38,425 nucleotides of DNA, taken from positions 1 through 38,425 of the forward strand of contig NZ_PYLQ01000024.1 of NCBI RefSeq assembly GCF_003024685.1, in the 5' to 3' direction. This document shows, in pieces, positions 32,544-38,411 of the stretch. The notes under the pieces were generated by a model, which searched no databases, was not told the origin of the DNA, and saw only the letters and a program-made list of their open reading frames with translations. The DNA comes from Faecalibacillus intestinalis (GTDB taxonomy: Bacteria > Bacillota_I > Bacilli_A > Erysipelotrichales > Coprobacillaceae). The translations under genes and the position numbers were made by a program. Position 1 is the stretch's first letter. Every line of letters starts with the position of its first letter.

Positions 32544-33680
32544 ATGAAATGTCCAATAATTAAAAGATGTGGAGGATGCTTTTATCCACAAGATCAATAT
32601 CAAGAAGAATTAAAAGAAAAGACATTATTTATAGAAAAAGAAATAAAGAAAACAAAATTAAAAATAGATGTAAAACCAACAGTAGCTTCACCATTAGTTA
32701 ATGGTTATCGAAATAAAGCAATTGTTGCTTTTAATCAAAAATATGAATACGGTCTCTACGAAGAACATAGCCAAGATATTATTCCTTATAAACACTGTTT
32801 ATTACACGAAGATATTATGGATGAAATTTTACAATATATACAAAGCTATTTAAGAAAGTATCGTGTTTCTATTTATGATCGTAAAAGACATAAAGGATTA
32901 TTAAGACATATTTTAATTCGTCGAGGTGTTAAAACAGATCAAACGATGGTTGTTTTAGTATGTAATGAAAATATGTGGCGTGGTTCTAAGCAATTTTGCA
33001 ACCAATTAGTTAAGAAGTTTCCAAGTATTAAAACAATTGTCTTAAATGTCAATACACGTAGAACACCAATTGTTTTAGGAAATGAAGATAAAGTTCTTTA
33101 TGGAAAAGGGTTTATTGTTGATGAATTATGCGGTTTGAAATTTAAGATTTCTCCACAATCTTTTTATCAAATCAATCATGACCAATGTGTGAACCTTTAT
33201 ACCAAAGCTTTATCCTTATTGAATATTAAAGGAAATGAAACAGCAATTGATGCTTATTGTGGTATTGGAACAATAGGAATGATTCTCTCACAAAATGTAA
33301 AACAAGTTATTGGAGTAGAAAGTAATAGAGACGCAATCAAAGATGCAAAAAACAATGCACGAATGAATCAACTTTCTAATATTCAATTTGTATGTGATGA
33401 TGCGACTGAATTTATGAAAAAACTTGCGAAAGAGAAACATAAAGTAGATGTTGTCATTATGGATCCACCTAGAAGTGGTTCTACAAAACAATTTATGGAT
33501 TCAGTTAAGATACTAAATCCTAAACAAGTTGTTTATATTTCTTGTGATCCTACAACTCAAATTAGAGATATCCAATATTTTAAAAAGATTGGATATCATA
33601 CAGATACGATGTATCTGTATGATATGTTTCCTCATACAAAACATGTGGAAAGTATTGTGTTGTTGACAAAGGTAGTTTAG
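32544..33680 (+). CDS. RNA 5-methyluridine methyltransferase, RlmD/RlmCD/TrmA type
   Basis: A 378-aa SAM-dependent methyltransferase making m5U in rRNA or tRNA. A CxxxxxCxxC iron-sulfur signature sits at the extreme N-terminus (CPIIKRCGGC), with a further Cys near residue 85 (YKHCLL). The usual N-terminal TRAM domain is absent. The SAM motifs are DAYCGIGTIGM and VESNRDAIKDA, the catalytic block VVIMDPPRSGS, the nucleophile in YISCDPTTQIRD, and C-terminal DMFPHTKHVESI. The RlmCD family in Bacillota modifies U747 and U1939 of 23S rRNA. The ribosome site is AAAGGGTG. Confidence 0.92.
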   Translation: MKCPIIKRCGGCFYPQDQYQEELKEKTLFIEKEIKKTKLKIDVKPTVASPLVNGYRNKAIVAFNQKYEYGLYEEHSQDIIPYKHCLLHEDIMDEILQYIQSYLRKYRVSIYDRKRHKGLLRHILIRRGVKTDQTMVVLVCNENMWRGSKQFCNQLVKKFPSIKTIVLNVNTRRTPIVLGNEDKVLYGKGFIVDELCGLKFKISPQSFYQINHDQCVNLYTKALSLLNIKGNETAIDAYCGIGTIGMILSQNVKQVIGVESNRDAIKDAKNNARMNQLSNIQFVCDDATEFMKKLAKEKHKVDVVIMDPPRSGSTKQFMDSVKILNPKQVVYISCDPTTQIRDIQYFKKIGYHTDTMYLYDMFPHTKHVESIVLLTKVV

Positions 33681-33986
33681 GAAAATAAAAAAAGATTTTA
33701 ATATAAAAGGTTTATTTTAGGGTCGAAAAAACGCCTTTAATAAACCTTTTCTTTAGCAAAATACTAGAATTAATGATAAAAATAAAAGGGTAATAAATAA
33801 ATTAAAGTAAATAAAAATTTTTAGCAAAAATCTTAGGTGTTTACGTAAAGATTTAAATGATGATAGATGTTATATTTTATTTTCTTATATAATTTATTTT
33901 GCGAACTTTTCTGATGAGTATTGAAATAAAGTATATTTTATCATTAGTATTAAAGCTTGATGTTAAACAAAAGACCGTCTGATTTT
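33681..33986. other. Noncoding gap with terminator between core genes and accessory island
   Basis: About 300 AT-rich bases without a credible gene. The hairpin AAAAGGTTTATT/AATAAACCTTTT (33706-33751) follows the methyltransferase gene. The remaining part shows no tRNA or repeated end that would mark an integration site. Confidence 0.6.
33706..33754 (+). terminator. Probable terminator of methyltransferase gene
   Basis: A 12-bp stem, AAAAGGTTTATT with AATAAACCTTTT, with a 22-base loop that can pair further (AGG/CCT). The T-run after it is short (TTTTCTTT). Confidence 0.55.
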
Positions 33987-34661
33987 TTATTTGAATTCGT
34001 CCTGATACAATTTTTTTAAATATCTTTGCATTTTTTTAATGCGTTCATATGATTGAGTTTTACTGCATTTAAAATTAACAAGTTTTATAATGTCTTTTTT
34101 TGAAATATCATTTATTAAGAGATCAAACACTTCTTCAGCTTCTGGGTATATATCAGATACTTTTTTTATTAGTTTAGATAACTCATATGTTAATAAATTA
34201 ACATTATATTCATCGGTTATTCCTGTTGGATCTAATCCGTATGAAGAATCATCGTTCATATCTTCTAACATTTTATCTAATGAAATAGTTCTAGAATTAA
34301 ACATATTAGAATCATTTTGTCTTGTACAGGATTTACAATTATTACATTTAGGACAACGAATAAGATTTCCTTTTTTATTTGTAATCAAACAGCGTTGTCT
34401 TCTTGTTGATTCAAGATATTGATTTACATCATAATTAAATGATTTTAATGCACTTTTTTCTTGTTCTTTTGGAACAATGACGAATCCTACACGTACTCGT
34501 CTTTGTTGATATTTAAAAGTAGTAAGATTTTCTTGATTTTTTTTCCATACAGGATTCCATTTTATAAGTTCTTCAGCAAGAACTGGTACAAGTACTTCTC
34601 CTTCGTTTGGTTTATTTCCTTCAATGTTTTTAAATTTTGAATAATTAACATTCTTTGACAT
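33987..34661 (-). CDS. Sigma-70-like protein of mobile-element type
   Basis: A 224-aa protein from the ATG at 34661, or 248 aa if the in-frame ATG at 34733 is used; both have strong ribosome sites. The pattern FKNIEGNKPNEGEVLVPV followed by a Cys cluster RCPKCNNCKSC and a C-terminal helical region ending KTQSYERIKKMQRYLKKLY is shared with the sigma-factor-like regulators of Bacillota integrative elements. The central part (SLDKMLEDM) matches the acidic linker. The helix-turn-helix is less clear than in better members. It lies at the start of an accessory block including type I restriction-modification genes. The family call is a judgement from memory of patterns. Confidence 0.6.
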   Translation of the reverse strand: MSKNVNYSKFKNIEGNKPNEGEVLVPVLAEELIKWNPVWKKNQENLTTFKYQQRRVRVGFVIVPKEQEKSALKSFNYDVNQYLESTRRQRCLITNKKGNLIRCPKCNNCKSCTRQNDSNMFNSRTISLDKMLEDMNDDSSYGLDPTGITDEYNVNLLTYELSKLIKKVSDIYPEAEEVFDLLINDISKKDIIKLVNFKCSKTQSYERIKKMQRYLKKLYQDEFK

Positions 34662-34816
34662 TTGATTTCCTCCTGAAATTTGTGGAGGAAAATCCACATC
34701 AAAAACGCTCTGAATAAAGTTGGCCAATACCATAGTGAGTTTTCCTCCTATTTTGGCCAGCTTGTCCTATTCAGCTGGTATATTTATTTAGTTGTTCACT
34801 AGAAACAGATAGGACC
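34661..34816 (-). promoter_or_regulatory. Structured leader with competing anti-Shine-Dalgarno pairings
   Basis: On the minus strand this 5' region contains two AGGAGGAAA ribosome sites, one before ATG 34733 and one before ATG 34661. TTTTCCTCC lies between them (complement at 34684-34692) and can pair with either. Farther upstream CCAGCT pairs with AGCTGG (34757-34778), while its loop sequence ATAGGAC can pair with GTCCTAT upstream (complement 34809-34815), giving a possible pseudoknot. These pairings partly exclude each other, as in regulatory leaders. Function is inferred from sequence only. Confidence 0.5.
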
Positions 34817-34817
34817 A

Positions 34818-34831
34818 TTCTTGATCAAGAA
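34818..34831. promoter_or_regulatory. Perfect palindrome TTCTTGATCAAGAA, candidate operator
   Basis: A 14-bp perfect dyad at the predicted start of the minus-strand transcript, 5 bp downstream of its -10. It is a candidate site for one of the adjacent XRE proteins. Confidence 0.5.
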
Positions 34832-34835
34832 ATGC

Positions 34836-34864
34836 TATTAAAAGTGAAAGCTTTTTAATGTCAT
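34836..34864 (-). promoter_or_regulatory. Candidate promoter of sigma-like gene
   Basis: On the minus strand -35 ATGACA, 17-bp spacer, -10 TTAATA. Moderate match. Confidence 0.45.
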
Positions 34865-35147
34865 GCTTAGGACATAATTTTGAAAAAAAGATGTAGGATA
34901 AAAGTTTCTACAACATTTATTTTTCATACTTAAATTCTAGCCTTATTGTTAGGAATAGAGAAACGAGCGGTTTGAATTTTGATATTCTAGTTTACATAGG
35001 TATATGTGTAGAAAAATATAGTTATTTATGTTAGAATGAAATTATTCCAAGAAGAATAAAATATGCGCCCAAAGAATTAGACACATAAGTACATAAGTGA
35101 GATATTTTAATGTTTGAATAGTTATTGTTAGCTGGAGGTGATAAATT

Positions 35148-35756
35148 ATGGCATTAGACACAGACATTTTAAAAAATAGACTTAAAGCAACATTTGGATC
35201 AGACTCACAAAAAACTACTGCTAATAAGTTAAACATGACACAAGGTAATGTTAGTAAGTTATTATCTGGTTTGCAGCAGCCAACAGTAGACACTCTTTAT
35301 CGTATCAACGAAGTGTATGGAGTTTCTATTGATTGGTTAATGGGAATTTCAGATAGAAAGAATGTTACAAAAATAGAATCTGAGCTTTCTTATTCACTTG
35401 CAACAGAGATTGTTACTGAACTTGTCCGTAATGGTTTAATATCGTTGAATAAAAAGAATAATTTACTTTCATTAGGAATTCATGATCCTATATTAAAGAA
35501 GCTTTTAGAAAAAAGTAATACAATTTCTAAAGTAGATGAAGATCTATATAGAGATTGGAAAAATGCAAAGCTTTCTTTATTTAATGATAAGCCAATACTA
35601 TGTTCAATGGCGTTTCGAGAAAATGATTTAGATAATAGAATTGATGAAGCAACTACAGAAAATTATTTATTAGAATTATATGAAGAAGCAAAACAAGAAC
35701 AAGACATCTACATATATATGATGTCCGGCATTGAAAGCGATCTTGGGGGTCAATAA
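35148..35756 (+). CDS. XRE-family HTH regulator, first of a tandem pair
   Basis: A 202-aa protein with an N-terminal Cro/C1-type helix-turn-helix, about residues 8-66: LKATFGSDSQKTTANKLNMTQGNVSKLLSG, then PTVDTLYRINEVYGVSIDWLMG. The C-terminal 130 residues are helical, acidic and unassigned. The ribosome site GGAGGTGATAAATT is strong. The next gene, 3 bases after the stop, encodes a paralogue with the same DNA-binding design and then hsdM, so this is a likely controller of the restriction-modification operon. Confidence 0.85.
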   Translation: MALDTDILKNRLKATFGSDSQKTTANKLNMTQGNVSKLLSGLQQPTVDTLYRINEVYGVSIDWLMGISDRKNVTKIESELSYSLATEIVTELVRNGLISLNKKNNLLSLGIHDPILKKLLEKSNTISKVDEDLYRDWKNAKLSLFNDKPILCSMAFRENDLDNRIDEATTENYLLELYEEAKQEQDIYIYMMSGIESDLGGQ

Positions 35757-35759
35757 AAA

Positions 35760-36425
35760 ATGGCGGAACTAAATAAGATTTTAAAGGAACGCCTATCAAA
35801 AATTTTTGAAGGAGAAACACAAGGGATAACAGCTAAAAAGCTAAATATGACACAGGGTAATGTTAGTAAATGGATGAGCGGCCAGCAACTACCGACAACT
35901 GATATGCTTTACACTATTTCTAAAACATATAAAGTGTCTGTAGATTGGCTTCTTGGCATTAGTGATGAACCTGAAGTAGATGGTCTTGTATTAGAAAAGT
36001 TGACATATGAACAAGTAGCAAAGATTTTTGATAATTTAATTGAGAATAACACAATAGAGATTCCAAATAAGAATGGAATATATTCATCGACGAAAAAGGG
36101 AGATGATGATGAACATACTCTGCCCATTTACATTTGGGAACACATAAAATTAAAAGATCGTTTATTGTCAGAAATTATGCGCCGAAGATATAAGTTAATT
36201 GATCCAGAATTAAATATGCATGATGTTTGGTATGATAAATTAGCATCATTTCACGGTCTACATTTACTGAATTACAATGAAAAACTTGAAAAAGTAATAG
36301 ATGCAAATAGTCCGGCTCAATTTAATGAAGGTGATTGGGCAGAATTAATTGAAAAATTATCAAAATTAAACGAGGATGAATTAGAAAAAATGGTAAGTAA
36401 AATAAATGAAAAGGAAGGTAAATGA
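35760..36425 (+). CDS. XRE-family HTH regulator, second of a tandem pair
   Basis: A 221-aa paralogue of the preceding protein. The helix-turn-helix region GITAKKLNMTQGNVSKWMSG plus LPTTDMLYTISKTYKVSVDWLLG repeats that of its neighbour almost residue for residue, while the C-terminal part is quite different (LEKLTYEQVAKIFDNLIENN onward). This suggests duplication of the DNA-binding domain with a new sensor or partner-binding domain. The preceding stop is 3 bases away. Its TGA overlaps an ATG of hsdM (ATGA), so the two XRE genes and hsdM form one operon. Control like that of C-proteins is plausible, but the helical tails are much longer. Confidence 0.85.
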   Translation: MAELNKILKERLSKIFEGETQGITAKKLNMTQGNVSKWMSGQQLPTTDMLYTISKTYKVSVDWLLGISDEPEVDGLVLEKLTYEQVAKIFDNLIENNTIEIPNKNGIYSSTKKGDDDEHTLPIYIWEHIKLKDRLLSEIMRRRYKLIDPELNMHDVWYDKLASFHGLHLLNYNEKLEKVIDANSPAQFNEGDWAELIEKLSKLNEDELEKMVSKINEKEGK

Positions 36426-36427
36426 TA

Positions 36428-37951
36428 ATGGCAAGTAATAACACAGCTGATATAGGATTTGAAAAAGAAATATGGGATGCAGCTTGTGTCTTAAGAGGAA
36501 ACATGGATGCATCAGAATACAAAAATGTTATCCTTGGATTGATTTTTCTAAAATATATTTCAGATAGTTTTAATGAAAAATATCAAGAACTGGTTGAAGA
36601 AGGAGAAGGTTTTGAAGAAGATCGAGATGAATATACATCTGAGAATATTTTCTTCGTACCATCAGGAGCACGATGGGAAGACATTGCATCACAATCAAAT
36701 AAACCAGAAATCGGTAAGGTTATCGATAATGCAATGACTGCGATAGAAAATGAAAATAAAAAATTAAAAGGAATTCTTCCTAAAAATTTTGCTCGTCCTG
36801 AATTGGATAAGCGAAGATTAGGAGAAGTTGTTGATCTATTTACTAATATAAAAATGAAAGAAGGTACTGACGAAAAAGATCTTCTTGGACGTACATATGA
36901 ATATTGTCTCCGCAATTTTGCGGAACAGGAAGGAAGAAATGCTGGTCAATTCTATACACCATCTTGTGTAGTAAGAACAATTGTAGAAATTTTGCAACCT
37001 TATAATGGCCGAGTATACGATCCATGCTGTGGTGCAGGTGGTATGTTTGTTCAATCAGCTGGGTTTATAAAAAATCATCAAGGAAACATAAACAATATTT
37101 CAGTTTATGGACAAGAATCAAATCCTACTACTTGGAAAATGGCTAAAATGAATCTTGCAATTAGGGGTATCGATTGTAATCTTGGTGAAATTCCAGAAGA
37201 CACTTTTTTAAATGATCAGCATCCAACTATGCGTGCTGACTATATTATGGCAAATCCTCCATTTAATCTAACACCTTGGGGAGCTGATAAATTAAAAGAA
37301 GATAAAAGATGGAAATTTGGAATGCCGCCAGCAGGTAATGCAAACTATGCTTGGATTCAACATATGATATGGCATTTATCTCCTAATGGGCGAATGGGTA
37401 TGGTACTTGCAAATGGCTCTCTTTCTTCTCAAAATGGAGGAGAAGGTGAAATTCGTAAGAATATTATTGAAGCAGATTTAGTTGAGGGAATTATTTCTTT
37501 GCCAGAAAAACTTTTTTACACGACTGGTATTCCTGTTTGCTTGTGGTTTATTAATAAGAATAAAAAACAAAAGGGAAAAACATTGTTTATTGATGCTCGT
37601 AAAATGGGAACAATGGCTACAAGGGCTTTACGCGAGCTTACTGATGGAACAAAAGATCCAAAAGATAATGATATAAAAAAATTGGCTGATACTTTTAGAA
37701 ATTTTCAAGAGGGTACATTAGAAGAAGAAAAAGGATTCTGTGCTATTGCTGATTTGAAAGAAATTGAAAAACAAGACTTTATTCTTACTCCTGGTCGATA
37801 TGTTGGTATTGAAGAACAGGAAGATGATGGAGAACCATTTGAAGAGAAAATGACAAGATTAACATCTGAATTATCACAAATGTTTGAAAAATCTCATGAA
37901 TTAGAGAATGAAATTCGTGAAAAGCTTGGAGCGATAGGATATGAAATTTAA
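36428..37951 (+). CDS. hsdM: Type I restriction-modification methyltransferase subunit HsdM
   Basis: A 507-aa N6-adenine methyltransferase subunit of a type I system. The N-terminal HsdM_N domain is FEKEIWDAACVLRGNMDASEYK. The SAM site is DPCCGAGGMFVQS (motif I) near residue 201. The catalytic NPPF motif lies in ADYIMANPPFNLTPWG. The C-terminal helical arm ends in QMFEKSHELENEIREKL. ATG 36428 is 9 bases from GGAAGG; an alternative ATG at 36422 overlaps the previous stop but is too close to the site. hsdS overlaps its end by 11 bases. Confidence 0.95.
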   Translation: MASNNTADIGFEKEIWDAACVLRGNMDASEYKNVILGLIFLKYISDSFNEKYQELVEEGEGFEEDRDEYTSENIFFVPSGARWEDIASQSNKPEIGKVIDNAMTAIENENKKLKGILPKNFARPELDKRRLGEVVDLFTNIKMKEGTDEKDLLGRTYEYCLRNFAEQEGRNAGQFYTPSCVVRTIVEILQPYNGRVYDPCCGAGGMFVQSAGFIKNHQGNINNISVYGQESNPTTWKMAKMNLAIRGIDCNLGEIPEDTFLNDQHPTMRADYIMANPPFNLTPWGADKLKEDKRWKFGMPPAGNANYAWIQHMIWHLSPNGRMGMVLANGSLSSQNGGEGEIRKNIIEADLVEGIISLPEKLFYTTGIPVCLWFINKNKKQKGKTLFIDARKMGTMATRALRELTDGTKDPKDNDIKKLADTFRNFQEGTLEEEKGFCAIADLKEIEKQDFILTPGRYVGIEEQEDDGEPFEEKMTRLTSELSQMFEKSHELENEIREKLGAIGYEI

Positions 37952-38411
37952 AAAATATTGCTTAGGTGAATTAGTAGAAATTAAATATGGGAAAAATCAA
38001 AAAAAGGTTATAGATAAAAATGGTAAATTTCCTATTTATGGTACAGGGGGGTTAATAGGATATGCAAATGAATTTTTGTATGATAAACCGTCTGTTCTTA
38101 TTGGAAGAAAAGGGACTATCGATAAAATTAGATATGTTGAACATCCTTTTTGGACTGTAGATACTCTGTTTTATACAAAAATTAATGAGAACTTAGTTGC
38201 TCCGAAATATCTTTATTATAAAATGTTAACCTTTGATTTAATGAATTATAATGAAGGAACTACAATTCCTAGTCTAAGAACGCAAACCCTAAATAGTTTA
38301 GAATTAGAAATTCCAAGTATTAATACTCAAAAAAAAATTGTTTCAATTTTGAATTCATTGGATAGTAAGATTACATTAAATAGTATGATAAACAATAATT
38401 TAGCGGCTTAA
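37941..38411 (+). CDS. hsdS: Type I restriction specificity subunit HsdS, single target-recognition domain
   Basis: A 156-aa protein corresponding to one half of a normal HsdS, which has two target-recognition domains. The TRD is residues 1-115: KYCLGELVEIKYGKN, PIYGTGGLIGYANEF, VLIGRKGTIDK, FWTVDTLFYTK. The conserved helix that spaces TRDs follows: EIPSINTQKKIVSILNSLDSKITLNS and MINNNLAA, where a stop occurs. A complete subunit would continue into a second TRD. This could be a true half-subunit that dimerises, a truncated copy or one partner of an inverting hsdS cassette. The window ends 14 bases later, so this cannot be settled. Confidence 0.85.
   Translation: MKFKKYCLGELVEIKYGKNQKKVIDKNGKFPIYGTGGLIGYANEFLYDKPSVLIGRKGTIDKIRYVEHPFWTVDTLFYTKINENLVAPKYLYYKMLTFDLMNYNEGTTIPSLRTQTLNSLELEIPSINTQKKIVSILNSLDSKITLNSMINNNLAA

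What the first reader, a model, noticed from the sequence alone, without database searches (positions are those of the whole stretch)
34661..34816. Two in-frame starts with competing anti-Shine-Dalgarno elements and a possible pseudoknot
On the minus strand, identical AGGAGGAAA sites precede two in-frame ATGs 72 bases apart. TTTTCCTCC between them can mask either site (9 pairs with the first, 8 with the second). Upstream, hairpin CCAGCT/AGCTGG has the loop sequence ATAGGAC, complementary to GTCCTAT upstream. TCCTAT can instead pair with ATAGGA at the first ribosome site. TGGCCAA near that site can pair with TTGGCCA in the early codons. Such mutually exclusive pairings are a hallmark of translational switches or coupling. 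I know of no described element with this layout.
Basis: partly seen in the sequence, partly recalled or inferred. Interest (0 to 1): 0.6.

Follow-up and report, generated by a model that had tools for sequence, protein, structure and literature searches.

The report
Phage RNA switch gating sigma-like gene
The stretch is a conserved folded RNA leader, a diverged relative of the unexplained 'DUF2800 RNA' of gut phages, that by default hides the start signal of a phage sigma-like regulator and has an upstream start site whose use could open it.

Summary
On the minus strand, two in-frame ATGs 72 nt apart follow identical AGGAGGAAA sites. The anti-SD, the hairpin, the pseudoknot arms and the TGGCCAA helix all lie where described. 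The leader folds more stably than shuffles (z -3.7).

Relatives from Clostridia, Streptococcus phages and 'Heliusvirales' phages carry the same layout with different letters. The loop pseudoknot pairs in nine sequence versions (0 of 200,000 permutations pair as well), as does the helix around the first start (0 of 200,000).

The layout is not undescribed. It matches Rfam RF02960 (DUF2800 RNA, no assigned function) over its full length, E 2e-8, but at 52 bits it is below the 60.2 cut-off. I call it a diverged relative, not a formal member.

New here: the switch extends past the Rfam model into a hairpin hiding the gene's own SD. In clostridial phages that hairpin is usually followed by a T-run (possible terminator). 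In this window and in Streptococcus phages an upstream ORF crosses it instead. The in-frame 24-residue extension is not conserved.

Most likely mechanism, inferred: default OFF, opened by upstream translation or a fold change. The trigger is unknown.

The parts
34858..34875 (-). P0: small hairpin ATGTC-CTAAGCAT-GACAT upstream of the Rfam-matching part
   Evidence: Found in window, L141, L146 and most RF02960-type leaders with compensatory stem changes (ACGTC/GACGT, CCGTC/GACGG) and loop CTGAGCAW
34690..34847 (-). Stretch matching the whole of Rfam RF02960 (DUF2800 RNA), model positions 1-158
   Evidence: 52.0 bits, E 2.3e-8 to 4.5e-8, below gathering 60.2
34795..34848 (-). P1: long 5' stem UUCACU/AGUGAA with the TGATCA-bearing inner hairpin; followed by ACAACTAAATA
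   Evidence: MFE; same place as RF02960 P1, which covaries in 9 of 10 outer pairs in 20 leaders; TGATCA...ACAANTAAATA occurs once in window, 0.01 expected
34809..34815 (-). Pseudoknot 5' arm GTCCTAT
   Evidence: Pairs ATAGGAC; homologues pair with other letters: GTTGTAC/GTACAAC, GTCTCAA/TTGAGAC, GCTCAA/TTGAGC, TAACCAT/ATGGTTA, GGCTTTA/TAAAGCC, AATTTCA/TGAAATT
34757..34778 (-). P2 hairpin CCAGCT/AGCTGG whose loop (34770-34764) is the pseudoknot 3' arm
   Evidence: Conserved with covariation CAGCT/AGCTG, CAGTT/AACTG, CGGCT/AGCCG, TCAAC/GTTGA
34710..34774 (-). P2': long-range helix CTGAATA (34774-34768) / TATTCAG (34716-34710), exclusive with P2 and pseudoknot
   Evidence: In the MFE of the window; a similar helix in the MFE of L176; RF02960 has a long-range helix at the corresponding place
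34721..34759 (-). P3: TGGCCAA/TTGGCCA enclosing SD1 and start 1; its 5' arm overlaps the P2 3' arm
   Evidence: Covaries across lineages, 0 of 200,000 permutations pair as well
34734..34751 (-). P4: local hairpin around SD1 (ATAGGAG/CTC-A-CTAT)
   Evidence: MFE; same place as the GGAG hairpin of RF02960
34744..34749 (-). SD1 AGGAGG (site 1; decoy and/or ribosome site)
   Evidence: Sequence; retained in every leader aligned, with or without a start codon behind it
34731..34733 (-). Start 1 (ATG) of the upstream reading frame, in frame with the gene in this window
   Evidence: Start conserved 72-79 nt upstream in 11 leaders, all three frames
34664..34694 (-). P5: hairpin GATTTTCCTCC (34694-34684) / AGGAGGAAATC (34674-34664) hiding SD2
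   Evidence: Pairing favoured in every leader tested; 100% paired in 20 RF02960-type leaders
34684..34748 (-). Alternative helix: site 1 GGAGGAAAA (34748-34740) with anti-SD TTTTCCTCC (34692-34684)
   Evidence: 9 bp here; matching helix 100% of 180 cells in RF02960-type leaders; 6-12 bp elsewhere; not covariation-proven separately from P5
33987..34661 (-). Sigma-like regulator gene proper (224 aa from the conserved start)
   Evidence: Homologues start here; profile match to sigma-like proteins behind RF02960 RNAs, hhalign 95%

Best explanation
The element is a structured 5' leader of a phage-type sigma-like regulator gene, homologous to but diverged from the DUF2800 RNA (RF02960). It works as an expression switch. 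In the default fold, P3/P4 enclose the upstream SD1/start and P5 hides the gene's SD2, so the regulator is not made. The 5' domain (P1, pseudoknot, P2) competes with P3 for the same letters. When that domain is formed, P3 is shortened and site 1 is freed. Site 1 can then capture the anti-SD directly, or be used by a ribosome whose upstream reading frame runs through P5 and past the gene start. Either route opens SD2. Shown: the elements, their conservation and covariation, the predicted default fold, and the upstream start and its passage across the gene start in the window and relatives. Inferred: which fold is ON, that the upstream start is used, and that an unknown signal shifts the balance.
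For: RF02960 full-length match. Pseudoknot in nine sequence versions and P3 in ten, 0 of 200,000 permutations pair as well; P2 486 of 200,000; loop-partner Fisher p 1.5e-7. P1 covariation 9 of 10 outer pairs; P2 AU to GC in four sequences; P5 100% and alternative helix 100% paired in 20 leaders. The default fold masks SD2 in all 12 leaders, with the alternative 9-28 kcal/mol weaker. The upstream start is present at the same distance in 11 of 11 leaders of the window, clostridial and Streptococcus types, and every upstream frame crosses the gene start. Downstream genes are homologous across types and several hit Sigma70 region 4. Coupling by unfolding of an SD hairpin is an established mechanism (PMC12548453).
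Against: The RF02960 score is below the curated cut-off, and other close relatives score lower still (L176 17 bits; L146 and Streptococcus leaders none). The alternative site 1:anti-SD helix is 9-28 kcal/mol less stable, and its conservation is partly explained by both sites being SD-like. Upstream peptides are not conserved between groups. RF02960-type leaders mostly lack a start codon at site 1, so ribosome coupling cannot be the mechanism there. Helix arms for the distant groups were registered by hand. No expression data exist.
Confidence: 0.6

Rival explanations
1. Transcription attenuator: P5 acts (or acted) as an intrinsic terminator and the site 1:anti-SD helix as the antiterminator; SD masking is a by-product.
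For: In nearly all RF02960-type leaders P5 is followed by four to six T right before the ATG, and the alternative helix is 9-11 bp and always paired.
Against: In the window and in its clostridial and Streptococcus relatives no T-run follows P5, and the terminator scan finds none there.
Confidence: 0.3
2. Leader-peptide translational attenuation of the erm/cat kind: ribosome stalling in the upstream reading frame exposes SD2.
For: Same order of parts: SD1, upstream frame, segment pairing with either SD, hidden SD2.
Against: Upstream peptides differ in sequence and frame between groups and run through the gene start instead of stopping before it; the RF02960 type mostly has no such frame.
Confidence: 0.1
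3. The RNA acts mainly as a cis-acting element on RNA polymerase or as a protein-binding site (antitermination or autoregulation by the sigma-like protein), with the SD hairpin only setting low basal translation.
For: A large conserved 5' domain plus hairpin P0 with conserved loop at the head of a regulator gene; some relatives keep an SD hairpin without an RF02960 match.
Against: Conserved overlap of P2 and P3 arms and the conserved decoy point to control at the SD.
Confidence: 0.2
4. A plain gene with two usable starts giving long and short protein forms; the pairings are incidental.
For: Both sites are good SDs and the frame is open.
Against: Covariation of the pairings; most relatives' upstream frames are out of frame, so no long form is possible there; homologues start at the second ATG.
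Confidence: 0.06

Closest known systems
Rfam RF02960, DUF2800 RNA (candidate cis-regulatory RNA; described by Weinberg et al. 2017 from my own knowledge, that paper not held)
   Same: Full-length alignment 1-158, P1 with TGATCA, ACAANTAAATA, GCTCAA/TTGAGC pseudoknot position, P3 and the GGAG hairpin; followed by homologous sigma-like genes
   Different: 52 bits against a cut-off of 60.2; the pseudoknot letters are replaced; the window has a start codon after site 1 and no T-run after the SD2 hairpin; the SD2 hairpin and alternative helix lie largely outside the Rfam model
erm/cat translational attenuators (own knowledge)
   Same: SD1 plus upstream frame plus hidden SD2 with alternative pairing
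   Different: The upstream frame crosses the gene start, its peptide is not conserved between groups, and there is a 5' pseudoknot domain
Translational coupling by unfolding of an SD hairpin, e.g. MS2 coat/lysis, rpmI-rplT (PMC12548453)
   Same: A downstream SD is hidden in structure that an upstream ribosome would open; overlap of tens of nt
   Different: The upstream frame here is a short non-conserved ORF inside a structured leader, not a gene
SD-sequestering riboswitches with anti-anti-SD, e.g. thiM or preQ1-II (own knowledge)
   Same: Anti-SD with two alternative partners, 5' pseudoknotted domain
   Different: No ligand known, and no Rfam riboswitch family matched

Membership tests
RF02960 DUF2800 RNA | Score at or above the curated gathering threshold (60.2 bits) | tested here: not met
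   52.0 bits, although E 2.3e-8
RF02960 DUF2800 RNA | Full-length match to the 158-position model | tested here: met
   Positions 1-158, not truncated
RF02960 DUF2800 RNA | Conserved 5' domain: P1 with TGATCA, ACAANTAAATA, pseudoknot at the same place | tested here: met
   pseudoknot by compensatory letters, not the consensus letters
RF02960 DUF2800 RNA | Same kind of downstream gene | tested here: met
   L130, L150, L153, L154, L155, L159, L161, L162, L164 read downstream; profiles homologous, hhalign 95%
erm/cat translational attenuator | Conserved stalling leader peptide ending before SD2 | tested here: not met
   Peptides not conserved between groups; frames cross the gene start
Riboswitch | Ligand bound by the 5' domain | not testable with these tools
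   No known riboswitch family matched
Intrinsic-terminator attenuator | T-run directly after the 3' hairpin | tested here: not met
   Window reads GGAGGAAATCAAATG (scan); met in nearly all RF02960-type leaders
Sigma-70 family (downstream protein) | Region 4 domain match | tested here: inconclusive
   The window protein has no Pfam hit above cut-off; homologous proteins of the RF02960-associated family hit Sigma70_r4_2, 8.9e-8; predicted C-terminal helices with low overall confidence and no PDB match

The most novel reading that the evidence does not exclude
DUF2800-type RNAs are a single class of two-state switch that gates a sigma-like regulator of Heliusvirales-type phages, in which the pseudoknot domain controls a decoy SD. 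The output stage has been exchanged in evolution: terminator plus antiterminator in clostridial phages, ribosome transit through an upstream frame in this element and in Streptococcus phages.
Probability: 0.35. Interest if true: 0.7.

Novelty: new variant of a known kind. Interest (0 to 1): 0.52.

Why it matters
RF02960 is an orphan RNA family, for which I found no text in the open library. Here it gains a target (a sigma-like regulator in phages of a lineage reported in most human guts, PMC9226167), a missing 3' half (the hidden SD or terminator), distant relatives in Streptococcus phages, and a concrete testable mechanism. If right, it is a decision point for phage gene expression that can be assayed with simple reporters.

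Tried and rejected
DNA search in 98 related genomes gave only short low-complexity matches. Protein search in the family and class found no relative besides the window's own gene, and plasmids had none. RF02960 in 395 class and 392 phylum genomes matched only the window's genome; those samples do not appear to cover the clostridial hosts. The loose IMG/VR pattern gave mostly chance hits. RF02960 finds no match in the Streptococcus leaders or in L146/L141, so their kinship rests on layout and gene homology. The DUF2800 gene was not found in the window's genome, but the control rang nowhere. The structure of the protein is low confidence (pLDDT 67) with no PDB match. An idea that RF02960 itself contains an upstream ORF was rejected: 16 of 20 leaders have no start codon at site 1, three that do stop after four codons, and one reaches the gene. 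MAFFT misregisters the pseudoknot between the window and L176, so arms for distant groups were registered by hand; permutation and shuffle controls are. The paper describing the 224 RNA motifs was not held.

Full report
Observation. The leader folds at -53 kcal/mol against a shuffled mean of -38 (z -3.68, none of 200 shuffles as stable).

Known relatives. A scan against all Rfam families gives one convincing match: RF02960, DUF2800 RNA, 34847-34690 minus, model 1-158, 52.0 bits, E 2.3e-8 for the 351-base scan and 4.5e-8 for the 701-base scan. The curated cut-off is 60.2, so formal membership is not met. The pair of conserved strings TGATCA ... ACAANTAAATA occurs once in the window against 0.01 expected. 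Four leaders pulled from viral contigs by a consensus pattern score 120-148 bits, and five more were found upstream of homologous genes in public phage records, four of them labelled Ca. Heliusvirales. Every one of these nine precedes a short protein with a Cys cluster; in the aligned family several members match Sigma-70 region 4. The window's protein and its clostridial and Streptococcus phage homologues are homologous to that family by profile comparison, E 3.7e-8. Ca. Heliusviridae were described as a widespread gut phage lineage whose core genes include DUF2800, DUF2815 and a DNA polymerase I, with a Streptococcus-phage subfamily (PMC9226167).

Conservation. Twenty RF02960-type leaders were aligned up to the gene start. 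P1: nine of ten outer pairs show changes on both sides; P2 local hairpin: 97% paired with one pair changing AU to GC in four sequences; pseudoknot: 98% paired, almost invariant; P5, the hairpin that hides the gene's SD: 100% paired. The helix of site 1 with the anti-SD: 100% of 180 cells, one compensatory pair in two related sequences. Comparing across lineages, the pseudoknot exists as GTCCTAT/ATAGGAC (window), GTTGTAC/GTACAAC (L176), GTCTCAA/TTGAGAC (L146), GTCTCAA/TTGAGGC (L179), GCTCAA/TTGAGC (RF02960), TAACCAT/ATGGTTA, GCCATT/AATGGC, GGCTTTA/TAAAGCC and AATTTCA/TGAAATT (Streptococcus phages); own arms pair 6.8 of 7 against 3.7 of 7 for exchanged arms, 0 of 200,000 permutations as good. 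P3, which encloses SD1 and start 1, gives 6.4 against 3.7 of 7, again 0 of 200,000. P2 gives 486 of 200,000. A second test, the longest complement of the P2 loop in the 75 nt upstream against dinucleotide shuffles, combines to p 1.5e-7 over nine leaders (all; arms of distant leaders registered by hand, and the lineages are related, so the combined value is indicative). The 3' arm of P2 overlaps the 5' arm of P3 in the leaders compared, so the two cannot both form fully.

The start sites. In 11 of 11 leaders of the window, clostridial and Streptococcus types an SD and a start codon (ATG or TTG) lie 72-79 nt upstream of the gene start, and the reading frame from it crosses the gene start; the frame relative to the gene takes all three values (for L142 the printed gene codon is off by one nucleotide because of the boundary I gave, its gene starts at ATGACAACACAAG). 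The window's in-frame N-terminal extension is therefore probably incidental. In RF02960-type leaders site 1 keeps the core ACGGAG but 16 of 20 lack a start codon there, so in that group it is better read as a decoy for the anti-SD.

Energetics and output. In all 12 leaders examined the anti-SD pairs SD2 by default; forcing the alternative costs 9-18 kcal/mol (27.6 in L179, where few pairs could be enforced). When only the RNA up to the anti-SD is folded, the alternative forms completely in two Streptococcus leaders and nearly so in two RF02960-type leaders, but hardly in the window (0.4 pairs). In nearly all RF02960-type leaders the P5 hairpin is followed by four to six T before the ATG, so it may also be an intrinsic terminator; in the window and its near relatives no such run exists and the terminator scan finds none there.

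Mechanism. Shown by sequence comparison: the folded 5' domain, the hidden SD2, the decoy or upstream SD1 and their mutual exclusion. Inferred: default OFF; formation of P2 and pseudoknot weakens P3, frees site 1, and either site 1 takes the anti-SD or a ribosome starts there and unfolds P5, the accepted unfolding route of translational coupling (PMC12548453). What shifts the balance is unknown.

Limits. No expression data. The alternative helix is conserved but its covariation cannot be separated from P5 and from both sites being SD-like. The Streptococcus and L146/L141 leaders are not recognised by RF02960.

Noticed in passing
window 32544-33987: The gene downstream on the plus strand (32544-33680) is a tRNA/rRNA uracil-5-methyltransferase (rum-like), and the sigma-like gene ends 306 bp from it. 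Two of the homologous Streptococcus phages carry 'rum' in their names, apparently after their integration site, so the element may be inserted at the 3' end of this gene.
   Followed up: partly
window 34858-34875: Hairpin P0 (NYGTC-CTGAGCAW-GACRN) upstream of the Rfam model is shared with most RF02960-type leaders with compensatory stem changes and a conserved loop; the Rfam model may be too short at the 5' end too.
   Followed up: partly
window 33987-34661: The window protein has a Cys cluster (RCPKCNNCKSC) like proteins behind RF02960 RNAs, while its closer homologues (L146, L176, Streptococcus) lack it; it looks intermediate.
   Followed up: no
L156, L157, L158, L163: Homologous sigma-like genes without RF02960 match have another leader: a terminator-like hairpin followed by an SD-hiding hairpin just before the ATG.
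   Followed up: no
L161 1375-1503: Public annotation of this phage gene starts inside the RNA leader, giving a likely false N-terminal extension; the same risk applies to the window's 248-aa ORF call.
   Followed up: partly
window 35148-38411: Two XRE-type regulators in tandem followed by type I restriction hsdM and hsdS genes up to the contig end, divergent from the sigma-like gene.
   Followed up: no
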